Below, piece by piece: positions 1 through 39,962 of a stretch of 39,962 nucleotides of DNA; position 1 is the first letter of the stretch, and the number at the start of each line of letters is the position of its first letter. Location of the stretch: the IMG/VR virus record IMGVR_UViG_3300036760_000952, positions 1 through 39,962 of that record; one strand, written 5' to 3'. Under the pieces are notes generated by a model, which saw only the letters and a program-made list of their open reading frames with translations, did no database searches and was not told the origin of the DNA. This stretch comes from a virus. Both the position numbers and the translations under genes were made by a program.

Positions 1-127
1 ATAAACGACTGGATTGACAGTGAAGGCAAGAAGCCCAAGAAAAACTATGCCGCCACTATTCGTATGTGGATAAAGCGCGATCGGGAGAATTCGAGGGTCG
101 ATACGAAGAAGTATCCTCCGAAAAAAG
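1..127. repeat. terminal direct repeat, left copy (circular closure)
   Basis: This stretch is identical to 39836-39962. An exact 127-base overlap at the two contig ends is what a k-mer assembler leaves when it walks round a circular or circularly permuted molecule, so I read it as closure of a circle of about 39,835 bp rather than a biological terminal repeat. The reading frame of the replication protein continues without interruption across the join, which supports closure. Confidence 0.93.
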
Positions 128-4805: not shown

Positions 4806-4890
4806 CATATTACTGCACTTGGGTCGCTCTATGTGGCTTATATATTGGGTATATAAACTGGCCATATATGTATTTTTATCCAAGGTTTGT

Positions 4891-6456
4891 ATGAAGAATT
4901 ACATAAAATACTTAAATCCACCTCAATCACAGCCTATTCCTGGCGAAAACATGGTCAAGAATAATGCTGGAGGCTATGTCTACGCAATATCTGATCAGGA
5001 AGCCCTCGAGAGATTCCTTCTGCTGGGCTCGGAAGGCGGAACATACTATGTTTCAGAAGAAAAACTCACCCACGACAATGCCACACGAACTATTGAGAAC
5101 ATCAAGAAGGATGGAAGGCGTGTCCTTAACACAATCTTATCATTCTGTAGCGGACACAGAGCTCCCAAACACAACGCCATACTCTTTACCTACGCACTAC
5201 TTCTTACTTTCGCCGATATAGACGCACGGAAGCTTGCCTATTCATACATTTCTGAAATTTGCTACACACCAACACACCTCTTCCAGCTACTCACTTTTCT
5301 TAAGCCACTCAGAGGATGGTCACGCGGTCTTAGGAAGGCCGTTGCAAACTGGTACCTGTGTAAATCTGATGATAAGTTAGCCTATCAAGTCGTAAAATAC
5401 CGTTCGCGATCAGGCTACACACACCGTGACGTACTACGCCTATGCCATCCTAAGACAAGCGATGAAAGAACTAATCAACTCTACCGATATATGGTAGGGA
5501 AAGAATGTATACCTGACCTATTGCCAGAGATCATTAAAGGCTACGAGTATCTAAGGACCGTTGCAGCGATAAAAGACATACCAGAGGTAATCGAGAAATA
5601 CGGTCTCACTTGGGAAATGATCCCTAATGAAATGCTCAATGTGCAAAGTGTGTTAAAGTCGCTCCTGCTCAACATGCCCCTGAATGCCCTGATGCGCAAC
5701 CTCAATCGCTATGCATACATTGGCTTGACAGAAGGTCGCTCGCATGAAACACAGGTAATATGTGAGAAATTGTGCAGCCCTATGTTGGTTCTAAGAGAAA
5801 AAATCCATCCGATCAGTGTCATGCAAACTATTTGTACCTATCGTCAAGGACATGGAGACAAGGGAAATAAGTCTTGGCAGCCAAATCAACACATCCTCGA
5901 TGCCCTGCACGAAATGTACTCGCTAGCTATGCAGACTATTGCGCCCACAAACAAACGCATCCTAATAGGTGTAGACGTGTCAGGCTCTATGTCAGGTACA
6001 GACGTGGCCAATATGAGTATGACATGCTCTCAGATATCACTTATATTAGCGCACACTATGCTAAAGACAGAACCTAACGTAGAGATGATAGGATTCACGA
6101 CACAAGTTATGCTTTTACCTTTTGGCAAGCGCAACTCAATCGATGATTTGCTTCAAGCGCGCTTTCCTTCAGGTGGAACTGACTGCTCCATACCTATCGC
6201 CCATGCATTGATAACAGGCAAAGAATACGATGCTATCATTATTCTGACGGACTCTGAGACATGGGCCGGCAACGTGCATGCTAAAGTCGCGCTTGATCAA
6301 TACCGTAAAAGAATAGGCGTGCAGACAAAAGTCATAGAAATTGCCCTCGCAGCCAATCCATACACAAACTTTCCACCTGATCCCAACATACTTAGGATTG
6401 TAGGATTTGACGCGAGTGTGATAACAGTATTACAAGAATTTTTGGGTCGAAGTTAG
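4891..6456 (+). CDS. rsr: Ro60/Rsr-family TROVE RNA-binding protein
   Basis: A 521-residue protein with the two domains of Ro60 in order. The TROVE domain (about 1-345) is built of helical repeats and begins with the family-typical NNAGGYVYAISDQEALERF and GGTYYV. The vWA domain (about 355-521) has a complete metal site: DVSGS at 362-366, Thr about 430 in SGGTD, Asp about 454 in ILTDSETW. Length equals bacterial and animal Ro60. I chose the ATG at 4891 (AAGG upstream, MKNYIKYLN) over 4819, which would add a spurious hydrophobic leader. In Deinococcus, Ro60 is a ring that binds Y RNA and misfolded RNA, and the Y RNA links it to PNPase. A Y RNA gene follows within about 50 nt. Confidence 0.95.
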   Translation: MKNYIKYLNPPQSQPIPGENMVKNNAGGYVYAISDQEALERFLLLGSEGGTYYVSEEKLTHDNATRTIENIKKDGRRVLNTILSFCSGHRAPKHNAILFTYALLLTFADIDARKLAYSYISEICYTPTHLFQLLTFLKPLRGWSRGLRKAVANWYLCKSDDKLAYQVVKYRSRSGYTHRDVLRLCHPKTSDERTNQLYRYMVGKECIPDLLPEIIKGYEYLRTVAAIKDIPEVIEKYGLTWEMIPNEMLNVQSVLKSLLLNMPLNALMRNLNRYAYIGLTEGRSHETQVICEKLCSPMLVLREKIHPISVMQTICTYRQGHGDKGNKSWQPNQHILDALHEMYSLAMQTIAPTNKRILIGVDVSGSMSGTDVANMSMTCSQISLILAHTMLKTEPNVEMIGFTTQVMLLPFGKRNSIDDLLQARFPSGGTDCSIPIAHALITGKEYDAIIILTDSETWAGNVHAKVALDQYRKRIGVQTKVIEIALAANPYTNFPPDPNILRIVGFDASVITVLQEFLGRS

Positions 6457-6507
6457 AGGGTTATACCATATTTACCCCTCCAACAATTATTTACCTAAAT
6501 TATTTTA

Positions 6508-6626
6508 AGTGGGTCGAAGAGCATTGGTTATCTATTTTAATGTCGTATGTTCAACTCATACACGGCGAAAGCTGTTAGCTCAGTGGTAGAGCGTGAAACC
6601 TTACCAAGCTCATAAAATTACCTACT
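6508..6626 (+). ncRNA. yrlA: YrlA-type Y RNA (permuted tRNA-like)
   Basis: The region folds as a circularly permuted tRNA. Outer helix AGTGGGT (6508-6514) with ACCTACT (6620-6626). Second helix GAGC-A-TTGGT (6519-6528, bulged A6523) with ACCAAGCTC (6603-6611). Anticodon-stem equivalent TTTTA (6535-6539) with TGAAA (6594-6598). Five-base variable region ATGTC. T arm GTATG-TTCAACT-CATAC (6545-6561). Acceptor stem ACGGC-GAAA-GCTGT (6562-6575), closed by a GNRA loop. TA linker. D arm GCTC-AGTGGTA-GAGC (6578-6592). Bacterial YrlA RNAs have this order, with the ends forming the Ro-binding stem. GGGTCGAAGAGC at the 5' side resembles the GGUCCGA-type Ro site of Y RNAs. It sits 51 nt after Ro60. Ends are approximate. 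Confidence 0.9.
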
Positions 6627-6631
6627 ATTTT

Positions 6632-6703
6632 GGCTACGTAGCTAAGTGGTTTAGCATCAACCTGTTAAGTTGAGGTACGTAGGTTCAAATCCTACCGTAG
6701 CCT
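6632..6703 (+). tRNA. tRNA-Asn (GTT)
   Basis: A complete cloverleaf. Acceptor GGCTACG/CGTAGCC, D arm GCTA-AGTGGTT-TAGC, anticodon stem TCAAC/GTTGA with loop CTGTTAA (anticodon GTT, 6664-6666), variable GGTAC, T arm GTAGG-TTCAAAT-CCTAC. All stems pair perfectly; the discriminator is T and no CCA is encoded. It starts 5 nt after the Y RNA. RNase P cleavage at its 5' end would therefore also define the Y RNA 3' end. Confidence 0.95.
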
Positions 6704-24072: not shown

Positions 24073-26226
24073 ATGCCAAATCCGAATCCACTAGCCTACC
24101 TAGGTGCACCAGATGCTACAGAAGCAGTTGTAGGGGTCACTAGACTAGCCACTGCTGCAGAAACTACTACTGGAACAAGTCGTATAATCGCATGTACACC
24201 ATTTGGTGTAGCAGGTTTGATTGCTGCGGGTGCTCCTGATGCTACCACAACGACAAAAGGTATAATCGAGATCGCAACTAATGGCGAAGCTGCTTCACAG
24301 GTGGATTCCACGCGTGCATTAGTCTCCACAAATATCGCATCTATCCTAGCAGCTCCTGGTCCTATTGGTGGAACGACACCTGATGCTGGTACATTCACTA
24401 CTCTTACTGCAACCACCTTCGTTCTAACGAATGCCATTACTGTTTCTGAAGGCGGTACAGGACTTACAACGATCACCGATCATGGCGTTATGTTAGGTTC
24501 TGGTACAGGAGCAGTAACGCCTATCACAGGTACTACAGGGCAACTGTTAGCAGGCATTACTGGTGCTGATCCAGCTTTTACAAGCTCTCCTGATATTCCA
24601 GGAACTCTAGATGTAACAGGAGTTGTGACTTTTGATGATGCGTTTAATGTAACAGGTGCAACAACTACTACTGGTCTTGTGACCATGAATGGTTCGGCCA
24701 ATATCAAATCTGGTGGAACTACTTTAGGCTTAGGTTCTGACAATGATGCTGCTGCAGTTAACCTAGCTATAGGCACAACTGCCCGTGTAATCACTGTAGG
24801 CGGTTCGGGAGCTAATACTATCGTCATAGGAAATACTCAGACTGCTGGTTCGATTACACTAGGTAATGCAATGACCACAGGTACTATCACTCTTGGTGGT
24901 ACTGTTGGAGCTGGTATTATCACTCTTGGTCGAAGCACATCAGCTTCAGGACAAACAATAAATATTGGAAGTGGCATAAACGCTGGTGCTCATATCGTAA
25001 ATATCGCAGCAGGTGCATCAGCTGCTGATTCCACTGTAAATATCCTTTCTGGCAATGCTACAGCAGGCACAATTACACTTAATGCGGCTACTGGTAATGG
25101 TGCTAAGGCAATCAACATCGGTAACGGTGTAGACGGCAATACAATCACTATCGGAAATGGCATCAACACCACTGCTCAGACAATCAGCATTGCTAACGGT
25201 GCTTCAGGTGCGGCTACTACTGTCAATATCATGTCTGGAACAGGTACTGCGTCTACCGGTACTCTCGCAATAGGCAATAACCCACGAGTCATCACGATTG
25301 GACTAGGTAACGTTGCTCCTTCTGCAAACCGCACTACAACAATTGCTGGTGGCACAGTAGTCGTAGCTACAACAACTGACACTCTTAACCTTGGAACAGG
25401 TGGTGCTACAACTAATGCAGACAGCATCAAGACCGTCAACCTCAACTCTGGTGGTGTAACTCTAGGTCAAGTCCTAACAAACATCGCTACAGGCGCTGTA
25501 ACAAGCGGAACACATACCACAGCAATCGCTACAGGCAATAGAGCTGCTGGTACCATGGCAGTCAACCTCTTGACCGGTACTGGAACCAAGACCCTTAACG
25601 TTGGCAACGCTGATGGACTAACCACAAGTAATGTTCTCGGCCCAACAAACGTCAACGTATCACAAAACAACAACACAGCGATTAACTCTGGCACCTCAAC
25701 AGGCACTATCACTATCGGAAACACTTTATCTGGCGTGATTGCTATATCTGGTGGTGCTGCCTTAACAGTTGATGCTGTAGGCGCTCTAAGCCTTAACTCC
25801 TCTGCAGCTGCTATCAACATAGGTAATGCTGCTAATGCATTTGGAATCAACATTGGTACAGGTGGTGCAGCTCGCACAATCACTATCGGTAACGTAACTG
25901 GTGCAACTGCTGTCGTGGTCAATTCTGGTTCTGGCGCTGTAACATGTAACACAAACTTTATCCTAGGATCTGTAGCAACGCAGTTTCAGATGAATGGTGG
26001 AGCAATTACTGACTTCATTGGTACTTTTGTGCTTGCTGGTGGAACTAAGACACAAGCCAACACAAACATTGCGACAGCAGATAGGATCTTCCTATCACGC
26101 GTCACTCAAGGTACTGGACCCGGTCACTTAAGCTATGTGATTAATAACGGATCTGACTACGTAGTGACTTCAAGTAATGTTCTTGACGATGCAACAATCG
26201 CATACTTCATCGTAAGACAAAATTAA
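24073..26226 (+). CDS. long tail-appendage protein with Gly/Thr beta repeats
   Basis: A 717-residue protein, first of the appendage array, with AAGGAG upstream. The N-terminal part (1-180) has fibre-type motifs TEAVVGVTRLAT and TTTTKGIIEIAT, then GPIGGTTPDAGTFTTLTAT. Residues about 180-630 are short degenerate repeats of the form TITIGN / TVNIxSG / ITLG, expected to stack as a beta-helix. The end (FILGS onward; RIFLSRVTQGTGPGHLSYVI) is a compact beta domain. It is probably the shaft of a side fibre or tailspike. Confidence 0.75.
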   Translation: MPNPNPLAYLGAPDATEAVVGVTRLATAAETTTGTSRIIACTPFGVAGLIAAGAPDATTTTKGIIEIATNGEAASQVDSTRALVSTNIASILAAPGPIGGTTPDAGTFTTLTATTFVLTNAITVSEGGTGLTTITDHGVMLGSGTGAVTPITGTTGQLLAGITGADPAFTSSPDIPGTLDVTGVVTFDDAFNVTGATTTTGLVTMNGSANIKSGGTTLGLGSDNDAAAVNLAIGTTARVITVGGSGANTIVIGNTQTAGSITLGNAMTTGTITLGGTVGAGIITLGRSTSASGQTINIGSGINAGAHIVNIAAGASAADSTVNILSGNATAGTITLNAATGNGAKAINIGNGVDGNTITIGNGINTTAQTISIANGASGAATTVNIMSGTGTASTGTLAIGNNPRVITIGLGNVAPSANRTTTIAGGTVVVATTTDTLNLGTGGATTNADSIKTVNLNSGGVTLGQVLTNIATGAVTSGTHTTAIATGNRAAGTMAVNLLTGTGTKTLNVGNADGLTTSNVLGPTNVNVSQNNNTAINSGTSTGTITIGNTLSGVIAISGGAALTVDAVGALSLNSSAAAINIGNAANAFGINIGTGGAARTITIGNVTGATAVVVNSGSGAVTCNTNFILGSVATQFQMNGGAITDFIGTFVLAGGTKTQANTNIATADRIFLSRVTQGTGPGHLSYVINNGSDYVVTSSNVLDDATIAYFIVRQN

Positions 26227-39193: not shown

Positions 39194-39962
39194 ATGTCAA
39201 GTCCAATTAGCCTCTTATCCCTTCTTCGTGGCGACAACTTCTTAGCCATAAACAGATCGCTCGCACACAAAATAGGTCTCCTTGAAAGCATTTGCCTGGG
39301 AGATCTTTGCAGCAAATACGAGTATCACCGAGATAAAGGCGAACTTACTACCATAAACGGTGACCCCACTTATTTCTTCGCTTGCATCGATGACATGCAA
39401 GAAAGAACTACCCTATCCCGATCGACGCAAGCCAAATGTTTGAGGCGTTTGAAATTGCTGGGTTTAGTGACTTATGTCCTAAAAGGCGCACCACCAAAGA
39501 GATACTTTAAACTTAATGTTGATAGAATCTTAGAGGTATTTGGCGTTAAAGATATTTCTACTAATTTGTCGAAAATGGAAATTCGAATTTCCAAAAGTGA
39601 CATTTCGAAATGTAAGAATCTCACAAATCAAAGTGCTGATTTCAGCAAATCCTATAATAAGGATTATGAGATCAGAGATATGAGATCAGATAAGAAAGAG
39701 ATAGGCGCTCCTAAAGTCGCACGACCCAACGAACATCTCATTTCACATGGATCAAACGTCAAGCTTTCTACTGCCGATTACGAAACCCTATGCCAGAAAT
39801 TTACCAAGCAGGTCGTAGATGATTGCATCGAGAAGATAAACGACTGGATTGACAGTGAAGGCAAGAAGCCCAAGAAAAACTATGCCGCCACTATTCGTAT
39901 GTGGATAAAGCGCGATCGGGAGAATTCGAGGGTCGATACGAAGAAGTATCCTCCGAAAAAAG
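39194..39962 (+). CDS. phage replication protein, N-terminal part (continues at 1-330)
   Basis: The ORF opens MSSPISLLSLLRGDNFLAIN and runs off the contig end in frame with base 1; joined length is about 323 residues. Residues about 15-115 form a winged-helix domain typical of phage replication initiators (SLAHKIGLLESICLGDLCSK, TTLSRSTQAKCLRRLKLLGL, KRYFKLNVDRI). A polar linker follows, then the DnaD-like C-terminal part (LSTADYETLCQKFTKQVVDD). GGAG is about 8 nt before the ATG. The only replication gene recognised; host polymerase and helicase are presumably used. Confidence 0.85.
   Translation, partial: MSSPISLLSLLRGDNFLAINRSLAHKIGLLESICLGDLCSKYEYHRDKGELTTINGDPTYFFACIDDMQERTTLSRSTQAKCLRRLKLLGLVTYVLKGAPPKRYFKLNVDRILEVFGVKDISTNLSKMEIRISKSDISKCKNLTNQSADFSKSYNKDYEIRDMRSDKKEIGAPKVARPNEHLISHGSNVKLSTADYETLCQKFTKQVVDDCIEKINDWIDSEGKKPKKNYAATIRMWIKRDRENSRVDTKKYPPKK
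39836..39962. repeat. terminal direct repeat, right copy (circular closure)
   Basis: Exact copy of bases 1-127. It should be counted once; the true genome length is then about 39,835 bp. Confidence 0.93.

What the first reader, a model, noticed from the sequence alone, without database searches (positions are those of the whole stretch)
4891..6626. Phage-encoded Ro60 ring protein with its own Y RNA
A full-length TROVE plus vWA protein (521 residues, intact metal site D362/S364/S366, T430, D454) is followed after 51 nt by an RNA that folds as a YrlA-type Y RNA. Ro60/Y RNA particles bind misfolded RNA and, in Deinococcus, attach to the exonuclease PNPase. Ro60-linked Y RNAs have been reported near Ro genes in bacteria and some phages, but here both parts sit as a compact module in a short-tailed phage between terminase and portal, behind their own control site. 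It could redirect host RNA decay, protect phage RNA, or handle tRNA fragments during infection.
Basis: partly seen in the sequence, partly recalled or inferred. Interest (0 to 1): 0.9.

Follow-up and report, generated by a model that had tools for sequence, protein, structure and literature searches.

The report
Phage Ro60 with three Y RNAs
A small complete phage genome carries a gene for the RNA-quality-control ring protein Ro60, closely flanked by three predicted Y RNAs (one a tRNA mimic, two stripped-down) and a tRNA; phage Ro60 and Y RNA pairs were already known, but arrays this dense look common in viruses and are missed by standard RNA annotation.

Summary
The ORF at 4891-6456 is a full-length Ro60 (TROVE + Ro60 vWA; intact MIDAS site; AlphaFold model TM-score 0.93 to Ro60-RNA complexes). 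The RNA at 6508-6626 is a tRNA-mimic Y RNA (YrlA type), supported by Rfam below its curated cut-off and by strong covariation in relatives. The presumed control site at 4818-4884 and the "51-nt gap" (6441-6499) are two further, minimal Y RNAs without the tRNA-like domain. A model trained without the window finds these three elements and nothing else in the genome at E<1. The module reads Y-Ro60-Y-Y-tRNA(Asn), with 5-8-nt spacers. In 48 of 54 related viral Ro60 loci I predict 135 Y RNAs, up to 11 in one, usually tiled head to tail on the Ro60 strand. The window is a complete circular genome (127-bp end repeat, about 39.8 kb). A phage of the same lineage lacks Ro60 at this spot, so the module is accessory cargo. 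Phage Ro60/Y RNA pairs have been known since 2014: this is a new member of a known kind with an unusually compact, expanded architecture. Function (PNPase tethering, tRNA-nuclease decoy, autoregulation) is inferred.

The parts
4818..4884 (+). Minimal Y RNA 1 (67 nt, no tRNA-like domain): outer stem CTTGGGT/ATCCAAG, GGGUCG motif, inner stem, UUUUUAUCC 3' strand; ends 6 nt before the Ro60 ATG and overlaps its AAGG ribosome-binding site
   Evidence: found by descriptor and fold; leave-one-out model R3 34.3 bits, E 3.2e-5 in the 40-kb window, both strands, filters off; homologous elements directly upstream of Ro60 in L012, L013, L091
4891..6456 (+). Ro60 (TROVE + vWA), 521 aa, intact MIDAS, conserved basic K169/R173/H186
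6441..6499 (+). Minimal Y RNA 2 (59 nt), overlapping the last codons and stop of Ro60
   Evidence: never in any training set; R3 44.4 bits, E 2.7e-7; R1 44.3 bits; L011 has a minimal Y RNA starting at the Ro60 stop (1745-1807)
6508..6626 (+). Long tRNA-mimic Y RNA (YrlA type): Ro-binding stem, T-arm (GTATG-TTCAACT-CATAC), closed acceptor-like hairpin, D-arm (GCTC-AGTGGTA-GAGC)
   Evidence: Rfam YrlA 31.9 bits; R2 83.3 bits; covariation in 20 sequences
6632..6703 (+). tRNA-Asn(GTT), 5 nt after the long Y RNA; last member of the array
   Evidence: Rfam 70.6 bits, ARAGORN

Best explanation
This is a phage-borne Ro60 ribonucleoprotein cassette. Shown by sequence: a complete Ro60 gene with three predicted Y RNAs and a tRNA tiled on the same strand. 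Inferred: the array is co-transcribed and host RNases cut the AU-rich linkers, releasing Y RNAs and tRNA; Ro60 binds the conserved GGGUCG/UUUAUCC stem shared by all three; the tRNA-like module of the long Y RNA tethers host PNPase as in Deinococcus RYPER, so infected cells degrade structured or misfolded RNA in a phage-favourable way; the two minimal Y RNAs, having no effector module, act as occupancy regulators or gates of the ring, the upstream one possibly also coupling Ro60 supply to its own translation because it overlaps the ribosome-binding site. The cassette is accessory cargo in the terminase-portal gap. Confidence that the parts are Ro60 and Y RNAs is about 0.95; the figure given here is for the mechanism.
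For: Ro60 identity: (TM 0.93-0.94 to 9nep/2i91, Ro60-RNA complexes). Three Y RNAs are the top three window hits of a model trained without the window, all sense, nothing else at E<1. Covariation: long-Y helices 82% paired, 24 of 32 pairs with double changes, score 0.55 against 0.21 shuffled and 0.07-0.25 slid; short-Y 0.65 against 0.25. The T-arm, acceptor-like and D-arm helices, which were not used to select sequences by pairing, are 88-100% paired. Strict descriptor near Ro60: 94 sense, 2 antisense, 0.8 in shuffles. 48 of 54 viral Ro60 loci carry Y RNAs, median spacer 18 nt. Accessory status: L172, same lineage by portal (65%) and capsid (79%), has no Ro60 in its record. PNPase tethering by bacterial Y RNA is established for Deinococcus (PMC8394870, PMC4726728, PMC7790460).
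Against: No expression, binding or PNPase data for this phage; host unknown, so the presence of PNPase is assumed. The linkers are only 5-8 nt and no processing site was tested. The RBS overlap of minimal Y RNA 1 is peculiar to the window (relatives have about 18-40 nt between Y RNA and ATG), which weakens a general autoregulation model.
Confidence: 0.45

Rival explanations
1. Counter-defence or tRNA-protection cassette: the tRNA-like Y RNA is a decoy for host tRNA-cleaving nucleases, Ro60 stabilises it, and the adjacent tRNA-Asn replaces a cleaved tRNA.
For: tRNA directly adjoining the Y array in the window and in L011 (tRNA-Met inside the array); the long Y RNA keeps T- and D-loops; Hughes et al. 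suggested YrlA could competitively inhibit an anticodon nuclease (PMC7790460).
Against: The tRNA species varies between relatives, and L172 has tRNA-Asn without Ro60. The Y RNA has no anticodon arm, so it cannot mimic the cleaved site itself. No RNA ligase or RtcB was recognised among the proteins of this genome that were searched.
Confidence: 0.2
2. Y RNA 1 (and possibly Y RNA 2) are not free Y RNAs but cis-acting mRNA elements: Ro60 binds its own leader and trailer to autoregulate translation and message stability.
For: Y RNA 1 ends 6 nt before the ATG and its outer stem includes AAG of the AAGG ribosome-binding site; Y RNA 2 overlaps the Ro60 stop codon.
Against: In relatives the same elements sit about 18-40 nt upstream with the ribosome-binding site free, and many short Y RNAs lie in multi-copy arrays away from the start codon.
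Confidence: 0.2
3. Ro60 assists phage or host rRNA/ncRNA quality control or stress tolerance without PNPase, or inhibits host growth by sequestering RNA.
For: The Ro-like gp53 of mycobacteriophage LeBron is cytotoxic on overexpression (PMC13148394); the Listeria phage CKA15 authors considered rRNA quality control (PMC12282133).
Against: Does not explain why tRNA-mimic Y RNAs are retained and multiplied beside phage Ro60 genes.
Confidence: 0.1

Closest known systems
Phage Ro-like RNA-binding proteins with Y RNAs (mycobacteriophage Bxz1/LinStu group, other actinophages; phrog_850)
   Same: Ro60 gene with YrlA-like RNA beside it; 356 phage records have such a Ro60, and LinStu and Cashline have YrlA-like hits
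   Different: At most 38% identical; mostly large-genome actinophages; in LinStu and Cashline the Y RNAs lie upstream of Ro60, while here Ro60 sits between Y RNAs in a 40-kb genome
Deinococcus Rsr / Y RNA / PNPase (RYPER)
   Same: Ro60 fold and a Y RNA with Ro-binding stem and tRNA-like module
   Different: PNPase partner not shown; two extra minimal Y RNAs; viral context
Salmonella rsr-yrlBA-rtcBA RNA repair operon
   Same: Ro60 followed by more than one Y RNA
   Different: No RtcB/RtcA found beside it; tRNA in the array
Metazoan Y RNAs / nematode sbRNAs
   Same: Minimal stem-loop Y RNAs without tRNA domain; related long Y RNAs in L017 and L003 give weak matches to nematode family RF01656
   Different: Weak similarity below cut-off; descent not shown

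Membership tests
Ro60/Rsr protein family | TROVE domain plus Ro60-type vWA domain, full length | tested here: met
   both above curated cut-off; end-to-end alignment
Ro60/Rsr protein family | Ring-shaped HEAT-repeat + vWA fold | tested here: met
   AlphaFold pLDDT 89.9; Foldseek TM 0.93 to 9nep, 0.94 to 2i91
Ro60/Rsr protein family | MIDAS DxSxS...T...D | tested here: met
   D362, S364, S366, T430, D454, invariant
Ro60/Rsr protein family | Basic residues of the Y RNA-binding surface (K170, R174, H187 of vertebrate Ro60, from memory) | tested here: met
   K169 and R173 invariant, H186 at 90% or more in 38 sequences; aligned
Ro60/Rsr protein family | Binds Y RNA / misfolded RNA | not testable with these tools
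   needs biochemistry
Bacterial Y RNA (YrlA type) | Ro-binding stem + T-arm + acceptor-like hairpin + D-arm | tested here: met
   for the RNA at 6508-6626; the two minimal Y RNAs have the Ro-binding stem only
Rfam RF02553 YrlA as curated | Score at or above gathering cut-off 69 | tested here: not met
   31.9 bits; no Y RNA beside the related Ro60 genes scanned reached 69 either (best 54.9, L017), and that of LinStu scores 36.1, so the cut-off misses this branch
RYPER | Y RNA tethers PNPase | not testable with these tools
   needs pull-down

The most novel reading that the evidence does not exclude
Phages have expanded Y RNAs into processed polycistronic Y RNA-tRNA arrays, with a distinct minimal class lacking the tRNA domain, so that one Ro60 is loaded with a menu of interchangeable RNAs (effector tether, gate, self-regulator) during infection; a viral Y RNA branch invisible to Rfam.
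Probability: 0.35. Interest if true: 0.7.

Novelty: new member of a known kind. Interest (0 to 1): 0.48.

Why it matters
Why phages keep Ro60 is an open question. A 40-kb genome with Ro60, three Y RNAs and a tRNA in under 2 kb is a small, tractable test case, and the minimal versus tRNA-mimic Y RNAs allow the ring-binding and effector functions to be separated. The models show that Y RNA arrays are common beside viral Ro60 genes yet score below the Rfam cut-off.

Tried and rejected
Single-protein search of viral contigs found no relative; an alignment query was needed. Single-sequence MFE was not decisive (z mostly -1.3 to -2 for the window elements). Sigma-70 promoter and terminator scans were no better than shuffles, so no promoter or terminator is claimed. 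A loose descriptor gave 54 sense versus 26 antisense loci and was discarded for a strict one. The idea that the upstream element is only a promoter or operator hairpin was rejected because it matches the Y RNA model. Rfam has no match for the minimal Y RNAs. The main papers on bacterial Y RNAs (Chen 2014, Sim & Wolin 2018, Sim 2020) are not in the held library, so statements about them come from citing papers or memory.

Full report
What was checked. The ORF from ATG 4891 to stop 6456 gives 521 residues. Pfam finds the Ro60 vWA domain (6e-41) and TROVE (1e-33). phmmer aligns it end to end with human Ro60 (3e-96), Deinococcus Rsr (1e-91) and Xenopus Ro60 (4e-89). The MIDAS residues D362, S364, S366, T430 and D454, and the basic residues K169 and R173, are invariant in a 38-sequence alignment. 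An AlphaFold model (pLDDT 89.9) superposes on Ro60-RNA complexes with TM 0.93-0.94. This is a genuine, apparently intact Ro60.

The RNA at 6508-6626 scores 31.9 bits with Rfam YrlA, below the curated 69 but with E 2.7e-5. It has a Ro-type basal stem, a T-arm with TTCAACT loop, a closed acceptor-like hairpin and a D-arm with the GG of the D-loop. An adjoining tRNA-Asn(GTT) lies at 6632-6703.

The module is larger than reported. Related Ro60 loci showed YrlA-like RNAs in the same orientation beside nearly every close relative. Reading these gave a common frame: 5' GGGUCG, an inner stem ending in GUUAU, and a 3' UUUAUCC that pairs with the GGGU. The same frame without the tRNA-like part occurs at window 4818-4884, immediately before Ro60. 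A covariance model of minimal Y RNAs then found another at 6441-6499, exactly in the 51-nt gap and overlapping the last codons of Ro60. A model built without any window sequence, run with filters off over the whole 40 kb on both strands, ranks 6441-6499 (E 2.7e-7), 4818-4884 (E 3e-5) and the 5' part of the long Y RNA (E 0.017) first, and nothing else below E 1. The order is therefore Y, Ro60, Y, Y, tRNA with spacers of 6, (overlap), 8 and 5 nt.

Statistics and covariation. A strict descriptor (7 of 7 outer pairs, at least 8 inner pairs) applied to the flanks of 163 Ro60 loci gives 94 hits on the Ro60 strand, 2 on the other and 0.8 in shuffled sequence. On 28 minimal Y RNAs the covariation score is 0.65 against 0.25 shuffled and 0.09-0.31 slid. 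On 20 long Y RNAs it is 0.55 against 0.21 and 0.07-0.25. Caveat: most sequences were chosen by the basal-stem descriptor, so the outer and inner helices are partly circular; the T-arm, acceptor-like and D-arm helices (98, 88 and 100% paired, 12 of 15 pairs with double changes) are not, and the sense/antisense control is independent. In 54 viral loci the two models give 82 and 108 hits, all but one on the Ro60 strand; some of these loci supplied training sequences. Merged, 48 loci carry 135 Y RNAs, 40 have two or more, 12 have four or more, and the median spacer is 18 nt. L053 has 11, L018 has 8. L011, the nearest relative, has a run of Y RNAs with a tRNA-Met inside it.

Phage context. The window has a 127-bp direct end repeat, so it is most likely a complete circularly assembled genome of about 39.8 kb. 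It has terminase, portal and major head protein, RusA, a PD-(D/E)XK nuclease, Erf and ParB-like proteins. The portal's nearest named relatives are podoviruses at 20-24% identity (that they are podoviruses is partly from memory). L011 shares the portal (60%) and Ro60 (55%); L172 shares portal (65%) and head protein (79%) but has no Ro60 in its 73.5-kb record. The Ro60 tree puts the window in a supported clade made almost wholly of viral contigs (SH-aLRT 95-99), several without this portal. The cassette thus looks like accessory cargo moving between unrelated phages. The one non-viral member, L091, is a 4.8-kb contig binned to a deltaproteobacterial MAG and may itself be phage.

Function. From established work, bacterial Ro60 binds the basal stem of Y RNA and the tRNA-like module tethers PNPase for structured-RNA decay in Deinococcus (PMC8394870, PMC4726728). 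Hughes et al. raise the decoy idea for anticodon nucleases (PMC7790460). For phages, LeBron Ro-like gp53 is toxic when overexpressed (PMC13148394), and Listeria phage CKA15 was proposed to make Y RNAs near an Rsr-like gene (PMC12282133). The most likely reading here is the RYPER-like one, with the minimal Y RNAs as regulators of ring occupancy. Every functional step beyond the sequence anatomy is inference.

Novelty. Phage Ro60 with Y RNA is known (PMC12282133, citing Chen et al. 2014 for mycobacteriophages; phage records annotated 'Ro-like RNA binding protein'). New here are the triple Y RNA, its tight tiling with a tRNA in a small genome, and the quantified abundance of Y RNA arrays in viral Ro60 loci that Rfam's cut-off misses. 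Whether such arrays have been described in papers not held here I cannot tell.

Noticed in passing
window 1-127 and 39836-39962: Exact 127-bp direct repeat at both ends, a typical circular-assembly overlap: the genome is probably complete at about 39.8 kb.
   Followed up: yes
L008 (Rhodococcus phage Trina) 2077-2213, 2292-2422: Two predicted long Y RNAs overlap a stretch annotated as pseudo 'tRNA-OTHER' (2155-2363) just before Ro60; probably a misannotated Y RNA pair.
   Followed up: partly
L053 679-2850: Eleven predicted Y RNAs and a tRNA upstream of one viral Ro60 gene.
   Followed up: partly
L009 (Picosynechococcus plasmid) 2060-2408: Several overlapping tRNA-like/YrlA-like hits upstream of a very divergent Ro60 on a cyanobacterial plasmid.
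   Followed up: no
window 24073-26226: 717-aa protein ending in a K1-lyase-type C-terminal domain, likely a self-processing tailspike.
   Followed up: no
record of L172 (G001:55989-57917): A second, 35%-identical portal homologue in one 73.5-kb viral record; possibly two joined phages.
   Followed up: no
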